From: an uncultured Bacilli bacterium
GTDB lineage: Bacteria > Bacillota_I > Bacilli_A > RF39 > UBA660
NCBI GenBank assembly: GCA_944333305.1
Contig: CALVKV010000068.1
Coordinates: forward strand, 1-7,653
Reading direction: 5' to 3'
DNA: 7,653 nucleotides
The position numbers and the translations under genes were made by a program. Each line of letters opens with the position of its first letter. Position 1 is the first letter of the stretch. The notes beneath the pieces are model-generated. The model searched no databases. It was not told the DNA's origin and was given only the letters and a program-made list of their open reading frames with translations. Below, piece after piece: positions 2,078-7,034 of the stretch.

Positions 2078-3193
2078 CTAACTCCTTTCAATTTCTCCAT
2101 TATTAACCTTAAAAATAACTGCATCTTTTAAAGTTTTCTTGGAAATATTCTTTAAATCAGTAGTTGTTATAATACTTTGAATATCTTCACTAACATATTT
2201 TAAAAGCTTATTTCTCTTATTTAAATCAAGTTCACTAAAAATATCATCTAAAAGAAGTACTGGATTACTACCATTATTTTCTTTAAAGATAGGTATAGAA
2301 GAAAGTTTATAAGCCAGCACAGCACATTTTTGTTGCCCCTGTGACGCATAAATCTTCATATCAGTATTATCATCCATAAGAAAACAAAAATCGTCTCTAT
2401 GAGGCCCAAATAAGGTCATTCCCGCACTTAACTCTCTCCTATAATTTTTCTTATAAGTATCCCTCAAAACTTCTTTTAAACTTTCTAAATCATAAGAATC
2501 AATAATTATATTAGGTTTATAAAGAATTTTAATAATTTTATTATCATCAGTAATATTATTATAAACTTCACTAATATAACTATTAATAAGAGATAAATAA
2601 TTATATCTTTCTTGATAAATCAAAATAGCTTTTTCTACTAACTTATCTGTTAAAACATCTAAATATGTTCTATCAGCTATAGAATTAGTGAATAATATTT
2701 TAAGATATTCATTACGTGTTTTTAATATTTTATTATATTCATTATAAGTAATTAAATAGGAATAAGAAATTTGTGATAATGTTATATTAAGTAAATTTCT
2801 TCTAATACTAGGTGATCCTTTTATAATATCTAAATCATTAGGTGTAAAAACAATAATATTTAAATTAGAAAGGTAATCAGCATATTTTTTAACTTTTTTA
2901 TCGTTTACAAAGATATTTTTATCTTTTTCTAAAAATTCTATTTTTAAATCTTTTATTTGCTTATTATTTATAACTCTACCTTCTATTATAGCTTTCTTTT
3001 TATTAAACTTTATAACATCGCTATCTAAACCATTTCTAAAAGATTTAGTTAAACCTAATATAGCAATAGCTTCTAATATATTGGTCTTTCCACTAGCATT
3101 ATTTCCAATAAAAATATTCATCTTACTACCTAAAGTAATATTAAATCTATTATAATTACGAAAATTTGTAATTTTTAAAGACCTAACTATCAT
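2078..3193 (-). CDS. recF: DNA replication and repair protein RecF
   Basis: RecF is an SMC/ABC-type ATPase that works with RecO and RecR to load RecA at single-strand gaps. The 371-residue length is normal. Visible motifs are the N-terminal LKITNFRNY, the Walker A GNNASGKTN (30-38), GPHRDD (263-268), the ABC signature ASQGQQKC (283-290) and Walker B with D-loop LLLDDIFSELD (313-323). The start is fixed by a TGA in the same frame two codons upstream and by alignment of MIVRSLKITNFRNY with the family N-terminus. Unusually, this ATG has no good Shine-Dalgarno of its own; the nearest good site serves a tiny overlapping ORF (3183-3215). Transcription probably starts from an extended -10 at 3269-3261, downstream of the comK terminator. 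The last codons supply the gyrB ribosome binding site, so recF heads a recF-gyrB-gyrA unit. Confidence 0.96.
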   Translation of the reverse strand: MIVRSLKITNFRNYNRFNITLGSKMNIFIGNNASGKTNILEAIAILGLTKSFRNGLDSDVIKFNKKKAIIEGRVINNKQIKDLKIEFLEKDKNIFVNDKKVKKYADYLSNLNIIVFTPNDLDIIKGSPSIRRNLLNITLSQISYSYLITYNEYNKILKTRNEYLKILFTNSIADRTYLDVLTDKLVEKAILIYQERYNYLSLINSYISEVYNNITDDNKIIKILYKPNIIIDSYDLESLKEVLRDTYKKNYRRELSAGMTLFGPHRDDFCFLMDDNTDMKIYASQGQQKCAVLAYKLSSIPIFKENNGSNPVLLLDDIFSELDLNKRNKLLKYVSEDIQSIITTTDLKNISKKTLKDAVIFKVNNGEIERS

Positions 3194-3215
3194 AATTAAT
3201 CAAAAAAACGTCCAT
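3183..3215 (-). CDS. Candidate 10-codon leader ORF overlapping the recF start
   Basis: This reads MDVFLINYDS and then stops at TAG. Its ATG (3215-3213) follows AGGTGAT at 3225-3219, a good match to the anti-Shine-Dalgarno, three bases upstream. It is in a different frame from recF, and its stop lies 8 nt inside recF. The recF ATG at 3193 is therefore within the last codons of this ORF. The recF start has no strong site of its own, so ribosomes ending here could re-initiate at recF. That role is inference; the peptide itself is unlikely to have a function. Nothing proves it is translated. Confidence 0.4.
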   Translation of the reverse strand: MDVFLINYDS

Positions 3216-3260
3216 ATAATCACCTACACCCTATTTTAGTACTCCTATACACGCAAGAAT

Positions 3261-3276
3261 ATTATATCATATTTAC
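3261..3276 (-). promoter_or_regulatory. Extended -10 promoter for recF-gyrB-gyrA
   Basis: On the minus strand a perfect TATAAT (3266-3261) is preceded by TG at 3269-3268, giving the extended -10 TGATATAAT. No good -35 is seen 17 bp upstream (TGTTTA at best), which is acceptable for an extended -10 promoter. It lies between the comK terminator-like hairpin and the recF leader ORF, so it fits a sigma-A promoter for the downstream repair/gyrase genes. Confidence 0.55.
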
Positions 3277-3290
3277 CCCCAAATAAACAG

Positions 3291-3315
3291 AAAAAAAGCA
3301 TTTATTTTGCTTTTT
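3291..3315 (-). terminator. Terminator-like hairpin at the end of comK
   Basis: The arms AAAAAGCA (3293-3300) and TGCTTTTT (3308-3315) form an 8-bp stem around a 7-nt loop that includes the comK stop codon at 3302-3304. Reading leftward, the stem ends in a run of seven T. The stem is mostly A-U, so strength is uncertain, and it could act in both directions. Confidence 0.45.
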
Positions 3316-3757
3316 CTTTTCGGTTTCTTAAAATAGATTCTAATCTGCTTGCTCTCATGATTTGATTATTAAAAGAATTATAAGAAATATCAATTGTAAG
3401 TATCTTACCATTTTTAAATTCTACTTCAGTTTTTGTACTAGTAATTTTACGATAACTTTTAACATTTTTTAAAGAAATCCAACTACAATTATTATCTTGA
3501 GGACTAGTTGTAGGAAAAAATATTAAGTTTCTTGTATCTTCTACCATAATTGGCAATTTATAACCACTATTTAATATCTCCCCTGCTCCTATCTTTCTTC
3601 CTTCATAAGAACTTCCAAAATATTTACAACTATAATCTACAATCTCCAAAGGTTTCATTTTAACCTCATAATTACAGTCATCTTCAACAACAACAGACTC
3701 CCATATATCACTAGGCATAATTGCAAGCGTTTCATCATTAATTTCATAATCTTTCAT
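3302..3757 (-). CDS. comK: ComK-family competence transcription factor, short C-terminus
   Basis: In Bacillus, ComK is the master activator of DNA-uptake genes and binds pairs of AAAA-N5-TTTT boxes. This 151-residue protein matches the family along most of its length: YEIN..TLAIMP at the start, MKPLEIVDYSCKYFGSSYEG (34-53), PIMV (69-72), FFPTTSP (80-86), CSWIS (91-95), NGK (116-118) and ISYNSFNNQIMRASRL (124-139). B. subtilis ComK, recalled at about 192 residues, has nearly the same blocks (MKPLQIVDRSCRFFGSSYAG, ISYNSFENQ). This copy stops shortly after that last block, so it lacks the tail that carries the MecA-recognised FMLYPK motif. The ATG at 3757 follows AAGGGGG (3770-3764) with a 6-nt spacer. 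It sits alone between two terminator-like palindromes, in the place of yaaA. Family membership is firm; whether it drives competence in this organism is inference. Confidence 0.92.
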   Translation of the reverse strand: MKDYEINDETLAIMPSDIWESVVVEDDCNYEVKMKPLEIVDYSCKYFGSSYEGRKIGAGEILNSGYKLPIMVEDTRNLIFFPTTSPQDNNCSWISLKNVKSYRKITSTKTEVEFKNGKILTIDISYNSFNNQIMRASRLESILRNRKEKAK

Positions 3758-3772
3758 AAAAATCCCCCTTCA

Positions 3773-3790
3773 AAAGCAATTTCTTGCTTT
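3773..3790 (-). other. Hairpin in the comK 5' leader
   Basis: AAAGCAA (3773-3779) and TTGCTTT (3784-3790) form a perfect 7-bp stem with a 4-nt loop. In the comK message it ends two to three bases before the AAGGGGG ribosome binding site. The T run after it is only four, so it is a poor terminator. It may stabilise the message or tune ribosome access. The function is not established. Confidence 0.4.
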
Positions 3791-3806
3791 GCTATTAGTC
3801 TACTAT

Positions 3807-3832
3807 ATAATATTGTCGAAAAAGGGGTTTTT
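3807..3832 (-). promoter_or_regulatory. comK promoter region with a ComK-type AT box
   Basis: On the minus strand a -10 like TATTAT (3812-3807, 5 of 6 to consensus) lies about 50 bp before the comK ATG. A -35 at normal distance is poor, as in many activated promoters. Just upstream, 3832-3820 reads AAAA-ACCCC-TTTT, an exact AAAA-N5-TTTT ComK half site. A second, imperfect box (AAAT-N5-TTTT) lies 18 bp further upstream within the dnaN terminator; 18 bp is one of the spacings known for ComK K-boxes. The tract is A/T-rich, so the second box could be chance. Autoregulation is a reasonable inference. Confidence 0.4.
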
Positions 3833-3846
3833 TTGTCACAAAAATG

Positions 3847-3877
3847 AAAAAAAAGTAAAATTTTTTTTACTTTTTTT
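3847..3877 (-). terminator. A/T-rich palindromic terminator after dnaN
   Basis: Arms AAAAAAAGTAAAA (3848-3860) and TTTTACTTTTTTT (3865-3877) form a perfect 13-bp stem around four bases, starting 3 bp past the dnaN stop. Reading leftward the message ends in a run of eight T. Only two stem pairs are G-C, so it is weaker than a usual intrinsic terminator, but length and position fit the end of the dnaA-dnaN unit. The symmetry would let it work from either side. Confidence 0.6.
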
Positions 3878-3880
3878 ATT

Positions 3881-5008
3881 TTAATACGTTCTAATAGGTA
3901 AAACTAATTGAGTTAGGCTATCATCTTCTTCACTTTTTAATAATATTGGTTTTATCTCTCCAACAAAATGCAACTCAACTGTTTCAGTATTAAAGGATTT
4001 TAAAGCATCCATCATATATTTAGAACTAAATGATACTTTAACATCAATATCTTGATCTTTACTAATAACCATCTTTTCTTCTACCCTACCAATTTCAGCA
4101 CTAGAAGATTTCATAATTAAATTATTTCCATTAGTCTCAAGTGTAACAGTATTTTTATCTTTATCACTAGTCAAAATACTAACTCTATCTACAACATCAT
4201 AAAAACTATTAATATTAAAATGAAGTTTAACTAAATAGTCTTTAGGTAATAAGTTAGAAGTATTAGGATATGTTCCATTAATAAGTCTAGATTGAAATAA
4301 AAGGTTTTGATATTTAAATAAAATTTTATTATTAAATATATGTATTTCTATCATATCTTCGCCATCATCAATTATTCTTGTAAATTCTACTAAATTTCTG
4401 CTAGGTATAACAATATTTTGATTTTCTTTACTACTCTTTTCTAATTTTATAACCTTTCTAGCTAAACGATATGAATCTGTAGCATTACATTCTAACACAT
4501 CACCTGTTATATTAAAGTTAATACCATTTAATATAGCTTTATTTTCATCAATAGATGTAGCAAAAGCTGTTTGATTAACAATTTCTTTTAATACATTAGG
4601 AGAAAGTTCTATATGACTCTTGCTCTCACCTAAATCAATATTAGGATATTCAGTTTCACTAATACCATTTAAATTAAACTCACTATTTTCTGTATAAACT
4701 AAAATTTTAAGTTCATCTACTACTTCTATATTAATATATTTATCTGGTAATTTTCTAACAATATCAGAAATATATTTACCTTGAATAATAATACTACCCT
4801 CTTCTTTTACTTTAATAACTTCCTCATCATCACAATTTATAAAGGTCTGAATAGTAATATCATTATCACTCGCTGTTAAAACTAATTTTTTACTAGTTAA
4901 TTCAAATTTAATACCTGCTAACACAGGGATAACATTCCTACTAGATATAGCCTTTGATACTTTATTTAAAGCATCCATTAAAATTTCTTTTTTTATTGTA
5001 AATTTCAT
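3881..5008 (-). CDS. dnaN: DNA polymerase III beta subunit (sliding clamp)
   Basis: DnaN is the ring-shaped dimer that tethers DNA polymerase to DNA and serves as a docking platform for repair and regulatory proteins. The 375-residue length is standard. It starts MKFTIKKEILMDALNKVSKA, a typical N-terminus, and three clamp domains of about 125 residues each follow. Conserved stretches include VIPVLAGIKFEL (26-37), NATDSYRLA (about 174-182) and the end LVLPIRTY, the hallmark C-terminus that forms part of the protein-binding cleft. The ATG at 5008 follows AGAAGGA (5022-5016) with a 7-nt spacer. It lies 140 bp after dnaA, with a possible promoter and DnaA boxes in the gap, so it can be read both with dnaA and by itself. 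A palindromic terminator follows directly. Confidence 0.97.
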   Translation of the reverse strand: MKFTIKKEILMDALNKVSKAISSRNVIPVLAGIKFELTSKKLVLTASDNDITIQTFINCDDEEVIKVKEEGSIIIQGKYISDIVRKLPDKYINIEVVDELKILVYTENSEFNLNGISETEYPNIDLGESKSHIELSPNVLKEIVNQTAFATSIDENKAILNGINFNITGDVLECNATDSYRLARKVIKLEKSSKENQNIVIPSRNLVEFTRIIDDGEDMIEIHIFNNKILFKYQNLLFQSRLINGTYPNTSNLLPKDYLVKLHFNINSFYDVVDRVSILTSDKDKNTVTLETNGNNLIMKSSSAEIGRVEEKMVISKDQDIDVKVSFSSKYMMDALKSFNTETVELHFVGEIKPILLKSEEDDSLTQLVLPIRTY

Positions 5009-5025
5009 TATTTATTCCTTCTTTC

Positions 5026-5046
5026 TTATATATATTTATAATTATA
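5026..5046. other. A/T-only tract, candidate DNA unwinding element
   Basis: Twenty-one consecutive A/T bases, with alternating TA steps, lie directly beside the tandem DnaA boxes at 5048-5065, on the dnaN side. In B. subtilis the unwinding site is likewise in the dnaA-dnaN spacer next to DnaA boxes, together with DnaA-trio repeats. Here triplets with a central A can be read (TAT AAT TAT AAA TAT), but the match to the TA[G/A] trio is weak and the GC-rich step seen in B. subtilis is absent. Placement supports the call; it is unproven. Confidence 0.4.
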
Positions 5047-5047
5047 G

Positions 5048-5070
5048 AGTGGAAAAAGTGGAAAACTCTA
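5048..5070 (-). repeat. Composite DnaA element, dnaN-side copy
   Basis: On the minus strand this reads TAGAG, then TTTTCCACT, then TTTTCCACT: two abutting DnaA boxes (5065-5057 and 5056-5048), each one or two bases from TTATCCACA, with a TAGAG prefix. The same 23-bp arrangement, 21 of 23 bases identical, occurs on the plus strand at 6673-6695. The two copies flank dnaA in opposite orientation. Here the element falls inside the presumed 5' untranslated leader of dnaN. Confidence 0.65.
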
Positions 5071-5082
5071 ATTTTCTCTTAT

Positions 5083-5091
5083 ATTATATCA
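5083..5091 (-). promoter_or_regulatory. Extended -10 promoter for dnaN
   Basis: Minus strand TGATATAAT (5091-5083) is a perfect extended -10, identical to the one before recF. No clear -35 is present at 17 bp; a 10-bp palindrome AACAATTGTT (5103-5112) occupies that region. The start point would be near 5076, leaving a leader of about 68 nt that holds two DnaA boxes. Confidence 0.5.
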
Positions 5092-5111
5092 TAAATTTTA
5101 TTAACAATTGT

Positions 5112-5147
5112 TGTGGAAAAAAAGTTTAAAACTAAAAATTATCAACA
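5112..5147. other. DnaA boxes just after dnaA
   Basis: 5112-5120 is TTTTCCACA on the minus strand, the same box as those in the main origin. 5139-5147 on the plus strand is TTATCAACA, one mismatch from TTATCCACA. Together with 5048-5065 they make the smaller, dnaN-side cluster of a bipartite origin like that of B. subtilis. The second box is weaker evidence than the first. Confidence 0.55.
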
Positions 5148-5148
5148 T

Positions 5149-6525
5149 CTATGGTTTTAAATCATTTTTCAATTTTTTTATAATAGCAGCCAAATCACTA
5201 TTATTTTTTATTTCTTGTTCGATTTTCTCAACCGAATGCATAACAGTAGAATGATCTTTTCCCCCAAATTCTGTTCCAATTTTTGGAAATGACTCACTTG
5301 TTAATTTTCGACATAAATACATAGCAATTTGTCTTGGGAAAGCTATATTACTACTTCTTTTCTTACTTCTTATATCTTCAACAGAAATTTGAAAGTATTC
5401 AGAAACAATTTTTTGAATTCTTGTAATATCGTTTTTTTCACTCAATCCTTTACTAATAAAGTCTTTAAGAGCTTCAATAGCAAGATTAATATCTATCTTA
5501 GCCCCGCCCATAATCGTAGAATATGCAACAAGTCTAGTAATAGAGCCTTCTAATTGCCTAACATCACTTCCCATATTAGAAGCTATATATTCTATAACAT
5601 CTTCAGGTATTTCTGTTTCAAAATTTCCTGCTATTATCTTTTTTCTAAGTATTTCTTTTCTAAGTTCAAAGTCAGGTGGATAAATATTAACAGTAAGACC
5701 CCAGCAAAACCTAGTCCTAAGACGTTCTTCTAAGAGCTTTAAATCATTAGGTGACCGATCAGATGAGATAATAATTTGTTTAGAATCATTATAAAGATTG
5801 GTAAATGTATGGAAAAACTCTTGCTGAGTTTGTGTAGCTCCACCTAAGAATTGAATGTCATCTATTATTAAGACGTCAATATTTCTATATTTATTCTTAA
5901 AAAAGTCTATGTAACTAAAATTAGTCCCCTTCTCGTCTTTCTTATTAATACCAACAAAATCATCTCTGAATTGATCACTTGTGACATATAATACTCGCCT
6001 ATTAGAATTGGAGGCGATATAATTACCAATCGCATGCATTAAATGAGTCTTTCCTAACCCACTATTACCATATATAAATAAAGGGTTATACATCTTACCT
6101 GGATTCTCAGCGACAGAAAGTGCCGCTGCCTGAGCAAATTTATTACTATTACCAACTATAAAGTTTTCAAAGCTATATTTTGGATTTAAATTAGATTTAT
6201 CTTTAAAGGATTTAGGAACCCCTTCTTCTAAAGTAATTTCTTCTTCTTTATTTTCTTTTTCCACTTTTCTGTTATTAACTTCATCTGGTAGTAGAAAATC
6301 TAAATCAAAATTAGTCCCTGTAACTTTATTTAAAGCTGCTCTAATAAGTTCAAAATAATTATCAGACAAATGCTTCTTATGAATTGACATAGGTACTTCT
6401 ATAATCGCTACACCATCATTTAATTCAATAAGTTTAACATCACTAAACCAAGTGTCGAAAGCTAAGGATGAAAGTTCATCTTTTATTTCTTTCAGAACAT
6501 TTTGCCATAGAATTTCGACATTCAC
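5149..6525 (-). CDS. dnaA: Chromosomal replication initiator protein DnaA
   Basis: DnaA is the AAA+ initiator that binds DnaA boxes, opens the origin and loads the helicase. With the GTG at 6525 it has 458 residues. Domain I (about 1-80) contains ILWQNVL and FDTWF; a short charged domain II follows (about 88-115). The AAA+ core has Walker A GNSGLGKTH (153-161), Walker B LIIDD (219-223), sensor 1 SSDR (254-257), EERLRTRF (266-273) with the arginine finger, and DVRQLEG for sensor 2. Domain IV ends with GGKDHSTVMHS (421-431), the DnaA-box-binding signature. An in-frame GTG at 6540 is rejected as the start, because GGGAGGTGAT (6538-6529) between the two is a near-perfect ribosome binding site for 6525, and MNVEILWQ aligns with known N-termini. 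A TATAAT at 6565-6560 and an overlapping DnaA box suggest self-repression. Confidence 0.96.
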   Translation of the reverse strand: MNVEILWQNVLKEIKDELSSLAFDTWFSDVKLIELNDGVAIIEVPMSIHKKHLSDNYFELIRAALNKVTGTNFDLDFLLPDEVNNRKVEKENKEEEITLEEGVPKSFKDKSNLNPKYSFENFIVGNSNKFAQAAALSVAENPGKMYNPLFIYGNSGLGKTHLMHAIGNYIASNSNRRVLYVTSDQFRDDFVGINKKDEKGTNFSYIDFFKNKYRNIDVLIIDDIQFLGGATQTQQEFFHTFTNLYNDSKQIIISSDRSPNDLKLLEERLRTRFCWGLTVNIYPPDFELRKEILRKKIIAGNFETEIPEDVIEYIASNMGSDVRQLEGSITRLVAYSTIMGGAKIDINLAIEALKDFISKGLSEKNDITRIQKIVSEYFQISVEDIRSKKRSSNIAFPRQIAMYLCRKLTSESFPKIGTEFGGKDHSTVMHSVEKIEQEIKNNSDLAAIIKKLKNDLKP

Positions 6526-6612: not shown

Positions 6613-6644
6613 TTTTCCACAAATTTTCGACAAATTTCTCCACA
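6613..6644 (+). other. Phased row of DnaA boxes
   Basis: TTTTCCACA (6613-6621) is followed by TTTTCGACA (6624-6632) and TTCTCCACA (6636-6644). Start-to-start steps are 11 and 12 bases, close to one helical turn, and all are on the same strand. The first is a strong box; the other two each differ from it by one base. The arrangement suits a row of DnaA molecules on one face of the helix. Confidence 0.5.
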
Positions 6645-6824: not shown

Positions 6825-7034
6825 ATGGAATATTTAGGTGAATTCACATTAGAAGAAATAGAGAGAATAAAAAGAAGAGCATGTGATTCAAAACTTAATG
6901 AAGAACTTGGTATTAAATTAACATATGTTGCTCCTTTAAAGTCATTAGGAAAAAACGATGATTTATTTCAAGGATTTATCTTTAACTATAATAATAATGA
7001 TGATACAAATGAGAACGAAGATAAAAAAAGGTAG
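6825..7034 (+). CDS. Hypothetical small protein beside oriC
   Basis: I do not recognise this 69-residue protein. It begins MEYLGEFTLEEIERIKRRAC, with a likely charged amphipathic helix over about 8-28. A short hydrophobic stretch around LFQGFIFNY (47-55) follows, then a polar tail rich in N, D and E (56-69). No signal peptide or membrane segment is apparent and there is a single cysteine (Cys20). The ATG has AGGAG at 6809-6813, with a rather long 11-nt spacer, and an extended -10 promoter upstream. Codon and base use match the neighbours, so it looks like a real gene, not a chance ORF. It is transcribed away from the origin, followed by the rpmH promoter with no terminator between. In B. subtilis dnaA and rpmH are direct divergent neighbours, so this is an extra gene. 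Function unknown. Confidence 0.65.
   Translation: MEYLGEFTLEEIERIKRRACDSKLNEELGIKLTYVAPLKSLGKNDDLFQGFIFNYNNNDDTNENEDKKR

What the first reader, a model, noticed from the sequence alone, without database searches (positions are those of the whole stretch)
3302..3757. A comK homologue inside the dnaN-recF initiation cluster
The 151-residue protein carries the ComK blocks MKPLEIVDYSCKYFGSS, CSWIS and ISYNSFNNQ almost unchanged. In B. subtilis, comK is far from the origin. Here the competence master regulator sits between the clamp and RecF. Gene dosage near the origin is highest in growing cells, so location could tie competence level to replication state.
Basis: partly seen in the sequence, partly recalled or inferred. 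Interest (0 to 1): 0.72.

Follow-up and report, generated by a model that had tools for sequence, protein, structure and literature searches.

The report
comK at origin under Spo0A boxes

Summary
In detail: window 3302-3757 (minus strand) encodes a 151-aa ComK (Pfam 162 bits, full length) between dnaN and recF. It is not a one-off: 65 of 70 loci from named MAGs have dnaN-comK-recF, 4 stop at a contig end, 1 differs. ComK distances follow RecF distances (r=0.88). comK occupies the yaaA/rlbA slot: 26 of 26 checked class members with comK elsewhere have YaaA beside recF; 0 of 46 genomes with this ComK have it.

comK-sense TTCGACA, the complement of the Spo0A core box TGTCGAA, occurs 60 times in 85 dnaN-comK spacers against 0.4 in shuffles, with partners at 10 or 20 bp and a -10 at a preferred distance. 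The same box precedes spo0A in 13 of 20 loci read. A comK relocated beside ligA kept its boxes; 6 of 7 genomes that lack SpoIVA and a sound Spo0A lost them. A comK-specific leader hairpin exists in relatives.

Best reading: Spo0A~P controls this single-copy comK directly, as in B. subtilis but through clearer sites. Gene dosage is untested. Control of com genes is inferred; no K-boxes were seen at the com promoters read. New variant of a known kind.

The parts
3302..3757 (-). comK, 151 aa, ComK family (PF06338)
   Evidence: 871 homologues at E <= 1e-5
3814..3820 (-). proximal Spo0A-type box, TTCGACA on the comK sense strand (TGTCGAA on +)
   Evidence: sequence; enrichment and spacing in relatives
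3834..3840 (-). distal box-like site TGTGACA, 20 bp upstream of the proximal one (2 mismatches, weak on its own)
   Evidence: sequence; 20-bp partner spacing in relatives
3797..3807 (-). probable -10 region (TATAGT and TAGACT overlap), 13 and 18 nt after the box start
   Evidence: TA---T at +18 from the box in 28 of 41 representatives, also at +13 in 19 and at +8 in 14
3819..3832 (.). AAAAN5TTTT (single K-box-like half) next to the proximal box; in 23 of 24 unique leaders of the window's close group, not enriched in 76 others
3773..3790 (-). leader hairpin AAAGCAA-GAAA-TTGCTTT just upstream of the ribosome-binding site; not significant in the window alone (z -0.9)
3764..3768 (-). Shine-Dalgarno-like GGGGG
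   Evidence: sequence
3846..3878 (-). A/T hairpin with T-run after dnaN: possible terminator separating dnaN from comK (judged by eye)
   Evidence: sequence; not reported by the scan, which asks for G-C pairs
3293..3315 (-). hairpin with T-run at the comK stop codon: possible terminator (judged by eye)
   Evidence: sequence; not reported by the scan
3881..5008 (-). dnaN (upstream neighbour)
2078..3193 (-). recF (downstream neighbour)
6626..6632 (+). single TTCGACA 92 bp upstream of dnaA, at nearly the same distance in most of the window's close group

Best explanation
This is a true, single-copy ComK, inherited largely vertically in a deep group of uncultured Bacilli in which comK stands in the dnaN-recF slot that relatives fill with yaaA/rlbA. 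The gene looks like a separate transcription unit. Its promoter has Spo0A boxes on the comK sense strand, 10 or 20 bp apart where there is more than one, the nearest starting about 18 bp before a -10 element, and in many relatives the leader folds into a hairpin just before the ribosome-binding site. Most likely phosphorylated Spo0A binds these boxes on entry to stationary phase and sets comK transcription directly, and ComK then turns on the DNA-uptake genes. Shown: the family, the location, the absence of yaaA, the boxes with their spacing and orientation, the presence of Spo0A in most relatives, the hairpin in relatives. Inferred: that Spo0A binds, the sign (activation somewhat more likely than repression, or a rise-then-shut gate as in B. 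subtilis), and that ComK drives com genes.
For: ComK family. 65 of 70 loci have both neighbours, 4 more end at a contig edge. ComK-RecF distance correlation 0.876 against a permutation maximum of 0.206. YaaA beside recF in 26 of 26 genomes with comK elsewhere, no match above 26 bits in 46 of 46 with this ComK. TTCGACA 60 sense and 4 antisense in 85 spacers against 0.45 and 0.27 in shuffles, partners at 10 bp (22) and 20 bp (25). Controls: dnaA-dnaN 1+/1- in 65 spacers, comK-recF 0/0 in 67, 6 in 566 kb-strand of other DNA, one of these being the comK promoter of G128. 41 of 72 representatives under 78% identity have an exact box. The core TGTCGAA is stated in PMC3485338 (passages). A Spo0A frame with RVERAIRHAIE in 20 of 20 loci read. 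Exact box upstream of spo0A in 13 of 20. The relocated comK of G128 keeps a box. Direct Spo0A~P binding at PcomK in B. subtilis: PMC3297582 (passages). Hairpin: 32 of 79 comK leaders at p<=0.05 against 3 of 67, 1 of 72, 1 of 47 and 4 of 83 for recF, dnaN, dnaA and gyrB.
Against: 33 of 85 spacers have no exact box. 28 of 82 genomes with intact Spo0A have no TCGACA in the comK leader; 22 of the 28 keep a 7-mer within one mismatch, which had no shuffle control, and 2 have nothing closer than three mismatches. The sporulation-loss covariation rests on 7 genomes, is not corrected for kinship, and I set the classes by hand after seeing some leaders (Fisher p 0.008 for TCGACA, 0.039 for box pairs). 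6 of 8 genomes where Spo0A was not found but SpoIVA was still have boxes, which fits incomplete MAGs but is not proof, and 0 of 3 with Spo0A but no SpoIVA have one. Boxes also occur in the rnpA-dnaA region (5+ and 19- in 51 loci). In the window only one box is exact. The nearest box lies between the usual -35 and -10, where binding could equally repress. No K-boxes were seen upstream of the ATPase or comEA genes (by eye), and G030 keeps comK without ComEC or a strong ATPase match. The window's own Spo0A could not be checked; the nearest relative G001 has it.
Confidence: 0.66

Rival explanations
1. The position itself is the regulation: origin proximity raises comK dosage in replicating or fork-stalled cells and so couples competence to replication.
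For: The position is conserved over a deep group. The same proposal was once made for the pneumococcal comCDE operon (abstract).
Against: yaaA is equally fixed in the same slot in relatives, so conservation may be inertia. In one clade (G128, G395, G371) comK has left the slot. In pneumococcus induction did not follow dosage (abstract). No dosage or expression data were available here.
Confidence: 0.12
2. The TTCGACA array belongs to the replication origin (Spo0A or DnaA acting on initiation) and only happens to lie before comK.
For: The rnpA-dnaA region also holds boxes (5+ and 19- in 51 loci), in the window's group a single one about 92 bp upstream of dnaA; DnaA boxes (TTATCCACA, recalled) are distantly similar.
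Against: The boxes before comK are comK-sense (60 against 4), at a preferred distance from a -10, nearly absent from dnaA-dnaN and absent from comK-recF spacers, retained when comK moved beside ligA in G128, and shared with the spo0A promoter.
Confidence: 0.08
3. This ComK has been repurposed: it no longer governs DNA uptake but some other stationary-phase task.
For: No K-boxes seen at the com promoters read. G030 lacks ComEC and a strong ATPase match but keeps comK.
Against: Core residues are conserved, 39 of 40 genomes have ComEC, with a ComEA-type gene before it in the region read, and G030 may be incomplete.
Confidence: 0.2
4. Spo0A represses comK, so that sporulating cells shut competence off (a variant of the main reading, not exclusive of it).
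For: The proximal box lies between the usual -35 and -10. In B. subtilis a site overlapping -35 (R1) represses (passages).
Against: No evident -35 in the leaders, which is usual for activator-dependent promoters (inference); in B. subtilis loss of spo0A lowers comK expression about 9-fold.
Confidence: 0.35

Closest known systems
B. subtilis ComK and the PcomK promoter (PMC3297582)
   Same: Same protein family; comK promoter bound directly by Spo0A~P; sigma-A type promoter (passages).
   Different: There comK is far from the origin (recalled), the Spo0A sites are imperfect and lie among ComK boxes and a Rok site, and ComK is about 40 residues longer with a C-terminal segment that MecA uses (recalled). 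Here comK sits between dnaN and recF, with core-consensus boxes 10 or 20 bp apart and no evident ComK-box pair.
yaaA/rlbA (TIGR02988) between dnaN and recF
   Same: Same chromosomal slot.
   Different: Unrelated S4-domain gene; not found above 26 bits in 46 of 46 genomes with this ComK.
Origin-proximal comCDE of Streptococcus pneumoniae (PMC8394987)
   Same: A competence regulator gene close to the origin (abstract).
spo0A promoter autoregulation by 0A boxes (PMC12090719)
   Same: The same box stands before spo0A in 13 of 20 of these loci.
   Different: Different target gene.

Membership tests
ComK (PF06338) | Full-length match above the curated score | tested here: met
   162.4 bits against 22.3, profile 2-151 of 152
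ComK (PF06338) | Conserved core residues shared with characterised ComK | tested here: met
ComK (PF06338) | Paired K-boxes (AAAAN5TTTT) at target promoters | tested here: inconclusive
   None seen by eye in the ATPase or comEA upstream regions; exact double box in 3 of 100 unique comK leaders, a single half in 23 of 24 leaders of the close group and 18 of 76 others
ComK (PF06338) | DNA-uptake genes in the same genome | tested here: met
   Relatives only: ComEC 39 of 40, T2SSE ATPase over 340 bits 38 of 40; own genome not held
ComK (PF06338) | Activates transcription of com genes | not testable with these tools
   needs expression data
Spo0A regulon | 0A box core TGTCGAA in the promoter | tested here: met
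   window 3814-3820; 60 against 0.45 expected in 85 spacers
Spo0A regulon | Spo0A with conserved recognition helix in the genome | tested here: met
   Relatives: Spo0A_C in 102 of 112 distinct genomes, some of these weak matches; helix segment in 20 of 20 loci read, the best-scoring ones; own genome not held
Spo0A regulon | Spo0A~P binds and changes expression | not testable with these tools
   needs gel shift and reporter assays
LytTR DNA-binding domain (fold of the protein) | Fold similarity well above unrelated structures | tested here: inconclusive

The most novel reading that the evidence does not exclude
In this group the competence and sporulation programmes are joined at the origin: Spo0A~P acts directly through core-consensus, helically phased boxes on the only comK copy, which stands in the place of yaaA between dnaN and recF, while another box sits upstream of dnaA in the window's group. 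One phosphorelay would then set replication start, DNA uptake and spore formation, and comK would lose this input when sporulation is lost. ComK itself may be a divergent LytTR-fold protein, a distant relative of pneumococcal ComE.
Probability: 0.3. Interest if true: 0.75.

Novelty: new variant of a known kind. Interest (0 to 1): 0.55.

Why it matters
It gives a natural series of comK promoters far from Bacillus in which direct Spo0A input looks much clearer than the imperfect sites of B. subtilis, and in which loss of sporulation can be compared with loss of that input. It suggests that Spo0A-to-comK wiring is not a Bacillus peculiarity, and it marks a large group of uncultured Bacilli as likely competent.

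Tried and rejected
Misassembly: rejected (43 contigs in the cluster; 70 loci). Spo0A kept only for competence after sporulation was lost: I held this after SpoIIE gave no real match in 46 genomes (9 of 46 had hits of 16 to 25 bits to part of the model), and dropped it when SpoIVA proved present in 41 of 46 and over the cut-off in 60 of 66. PMC10868615 reports that the orders RF39, ML615J-28 and part of RFN20 have little or no spoIIE yet may sporulate (passages and section 21); that the present group belongs to these orders was not shown by any search. Sigma-H promoter before comK: 7 of 16 genomes with a strong SigH match against 3 of 30 others, two of the three running into the ribosome-binding site (p 0.02, kinship not corrected); too weak to claim. 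K-box autoregulation: inconclusive. DnaA boxes as an explanation of TTCGACA: judged unlikely. Solved relatives of ComK by sequence: none convincing. Rfam at gathering thresholds: none. Promoter scan of 3100-5200: 21 sites against 15.4 (sd 4.4) in shuffles; one terminator-like site, inside dnaN. The first fold model was of middling quality (pLDDT 76); the second is good (94.9).

Not examined: 56 of the 167 ComK-bearing genomes of the class sample were not checked for the place of recF; the dnaN-recF junction of G128, G395 and G371; genomes of the class without ComK; comFA, dprA and mecA. Completeness was not given for any genome.

Full report
WHAT IS THERE. The 151-codon frame at 3302-3757 is on the minus strand and encodes a full-length ComK: PF06338, 162.4 bits, E 8.3e-48. 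On the same strand the order is dnaA, dnaN, comK, recF, gyrB; rpmH (by eye) and rnpA lie on the plus strand. Flanking hairpins with T-runs, judged by eye (coordinates checked), make comK look like its own transcription unit.

HOW GENERAL IT IS. A scan of species genomes gave 70 loci of named MAGs (Bacilli, Tenericutes, Mollicutes, Candidatus Onthousia and others). In 65 of 70 the gene lies between DnaN and RecF, in 4 of 70 one neighbour is cut off by a contig end (L014, L033, L061, L064), and in 1 (L049) it does not. L053 has a transposase-like frame and L041 an extra frame in the interval (by eye). In an even sample of 395 genomes of the class, 167 have a ComK match. I placed 111 of these 167 relative to recF: 48 adjacent, 1 about 2 kb away (G229), 3 of one clade elsewhere (G128, G395, G371), 55 on another contig or more than 30 kb away, 4 without a found recF. 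The other 56 were not placed. In G128 and G395 comK lies next to an NAD-dependent DNA ligase gene (Pfam); in G371 the contig begins just before comK, and the frames after it are those that follow comK in G128 (by eye). 32 of 32 searched genomes behind loci have exactly one ComK.

WHAT IT REPLACED. YaaA_near_RecF was found directly beside recF in 26 of 26 genomes of the class whose comK lies elsewhere (13 over the curated cut-off, 13 at 71 to 84 bits just below it), and in 0 of 46 genomes with this ComK (nine of them had only 20 to 26 bit hits, within larger frames). ComK distances follow RecF (r 0.876) and DnaN (r 0.765) distances over 92 loci, some of them near-duplicates. A tree of 80 ComK rows puts the seven dispersed ones apart (96/89) and the three relocated ones in one nested clade (100/82), so that move was secondary. 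The recalled B. subtilis row falls among the origin rows (90/74, not well supported), so the tree does not show that the origin group is one clade to the exclusion of Bacillus; the bootstrap had not settled and several branches are long.

THE PROMOTER. I read the dnaN-comK spacers. TTCGACA on the comK strand occurs 60 times in 85 unique complete spacers (4 times on the other strand), against 0.45 and 0.27 in dinucleotide shuffles; 52 of 85 have at least one, 7 at least two. Partner sites with up to one mismatch lie at 10 bp (22 counts) and 20 bp (25 counts), a pair of exact boxes counting twice. L053 and L070 were dropped from these counts. Among 72 ComK representatives under 78% identity, 41 have an exact box, 38 a pair with at most two mismatches in total, 2 an antisense box; of the 41, 28 have TA---T at +18 from the box start, 19 at +13 and 14 at +8, and at most 5 at any other offset from 8 to 35. 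Over all 67 leaders with an exact box, near-copies included, T, A and T at +18, +19 and +23 stand in 61, 56 and 61. Control regions of the same loci: dnaA-dnaN 1 and 1 in 65, comK-recF 0 in 67, dnaN and recF coding 1 in 148 kb. rnpA-dnaA has 5 and 19 in 51, and dnaA coding regions have 52, from a shared stretch of the protein, I presume. Twenty other regions hold 6 in 566 kb of strand, one of which is the G128 comK promoter.

WHOSE BOX IT IS. TTCGACA is the complement of TGTCGAA, given as the Spo0A core box in PMC3485338 (passages read). Spo0A_C is found in 102 of 112 distinct genomes (42 of 46, 61 of 67, one genome in both); some of these matches are weak or cut. A frame with RVERAIRHAIE, the recognition helix by recall, is in 20 of 20 loci read, which are the best-scoring ones. 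The exact box stands within 250 bp upstream of spo0A in 13 of 20 of these loci, one of the other seven having only a fragment of the gene, as expected for autoregulation (PMC12090719, passages read). In B. subtilis Spo0A~P binds PcomK directly, five imperfect sites were recognised, and loss of spo0A cuts the comK uptick about 9-fold (PMC3297582, passages read).

DOES THE BOX FOLLOW SPO0A. Of 102 genomes with a leader, TCGACA is present in 54 of 79 with intact Spo0A and SpoIVA, in 0 of 3 with intact Spo0A but no SpoIVA, in 3 of 3 with Spo0A cut at a contig end, in 6 of 8 without Spo0A but with SpoIVA, in 2 of 2 with only a weak Spo0A match but SpoIVA, and in 1 of 7 with neither SpoIVA nor a sound Spo0A (Fisher 1 of 7 against 54 of 79, p 0.008; box pairs 1 of 7 against 48 of 79, p 0.039; not corrected for kinship, classes set by hand after I had seen some leaders). 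The relatives G113 (degenerate Spo0A, no SpoIVA, no box) and G389 (intact, two boxes), sisters in the ComK tree, differ as predicted. The relocated comK of G128 (intact Spo0A) keeps a box; those of G395 and G371 (weak Spo0A match, no SpoIVA) do not. Missing genes in MAGs may be missing sequence, so this is support and not proof.

LEADER HAIRPIN. A stem of changing sequence precedes the ribosome-binding site. 32 of 79 comK leaders fold better than 95% of shuffles (mean z -1.38) against 3 of 67 recF, 1 of 72 dnaN, 1 of 47 dnaA and 4 of 83 gyrB leaders. The window's own hairpin is not significant by itself (z -0.9). Its role (stability or translation control) is unknown.

DOWNSTREAM. ComEC is in 39 of 40 and a T2SSE ATPase over 340 bits, ComG or PilB type, in 38 of 40 genomes. 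In the G001 region read, a gene with SLBB and helix-hairpin-helix domains, as in ComEA, precedes comEC. No K-box was seen upstream of these genes by eye. That ComK controls them is inferred from the family.

LITERATURE. Searches of the held library for comK with dnaN and recF, ComK with Tenericutes, ComK distribution, Spo0A with the comK promoter, ComK with LytTR, RF39 with Spo0A and competence and comK with chromosomal position listed no paper whose title or abstract start describes this arrangement. The listings are capped and the library lacks most subscription journals.

VERDICT. A real, conserved placement of a known regulator with a clear candidate regulatory input. New variant of a known kind; interest 0.55. 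On re-checking I lowered the main confidence from 0.68 to 0.66, since the classes were set by hand and the tree leaves Bacillus among the origin rows.

Noticed in passing
window 6825-7034 (+): A 69-aa frame of unknown family between dnaA and rpmH; a relative lies at the same place in a number of the close loci; Pfam and NCBIfam give nothing.
   Followed up: partly
window 6626-6632 (+): A single TTCGACA 92 bp upstream of dnaA in the window and at 91-94 bp in most of its close group, near DnaA-like boxes. Three rows of that listing (L020, L028, L046) are artefacts of a cut dnaA.
   Followed up: partly
ComK model md4f3b57a2b6e: The predicted ComK fold resembles LytTR DNA-binding domains (ComE, AgrA) above unrelated structures, with modest scores.
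   Followed up: partly
L163, L166, L169, L172 upstream of comEA: The comEA leaders of the close group hold repeated A/T inverted repeats, some with CCC...GGG stems; nature unknown (by eye).
   Followed up: no
L103, L105, L108, L109, L116, L120, L124, L125 upstream of comEA: A shared AAAGGAAAT-like stretch followed by TATATA-like sequence before comEA in the deeper group, perhaps a sigma-H-like promoter (by eye).
   Followed up: partly
L162 (G001) 5438-9230: A second secretion ATPase lies beside an RcpC/CpaB-like gene (25 bits, below cut-off), so probably in a Tad-like pilus cluster.
   Followed up: partly
L053 8227-10001; L041 10438-11488; L234 1793-3850: Insertions beside comK: a transposase-like frame, a zinc-ribbon-like frame, and unknown frames between comK and recF in G229 (by eye).
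   Followed up: no
G030 (locus L067): A genome that keeps comK at the origin but has no ComEC match and no strong secretion ATPase match; incomplete assembly or relict comK.
   Followed up: no
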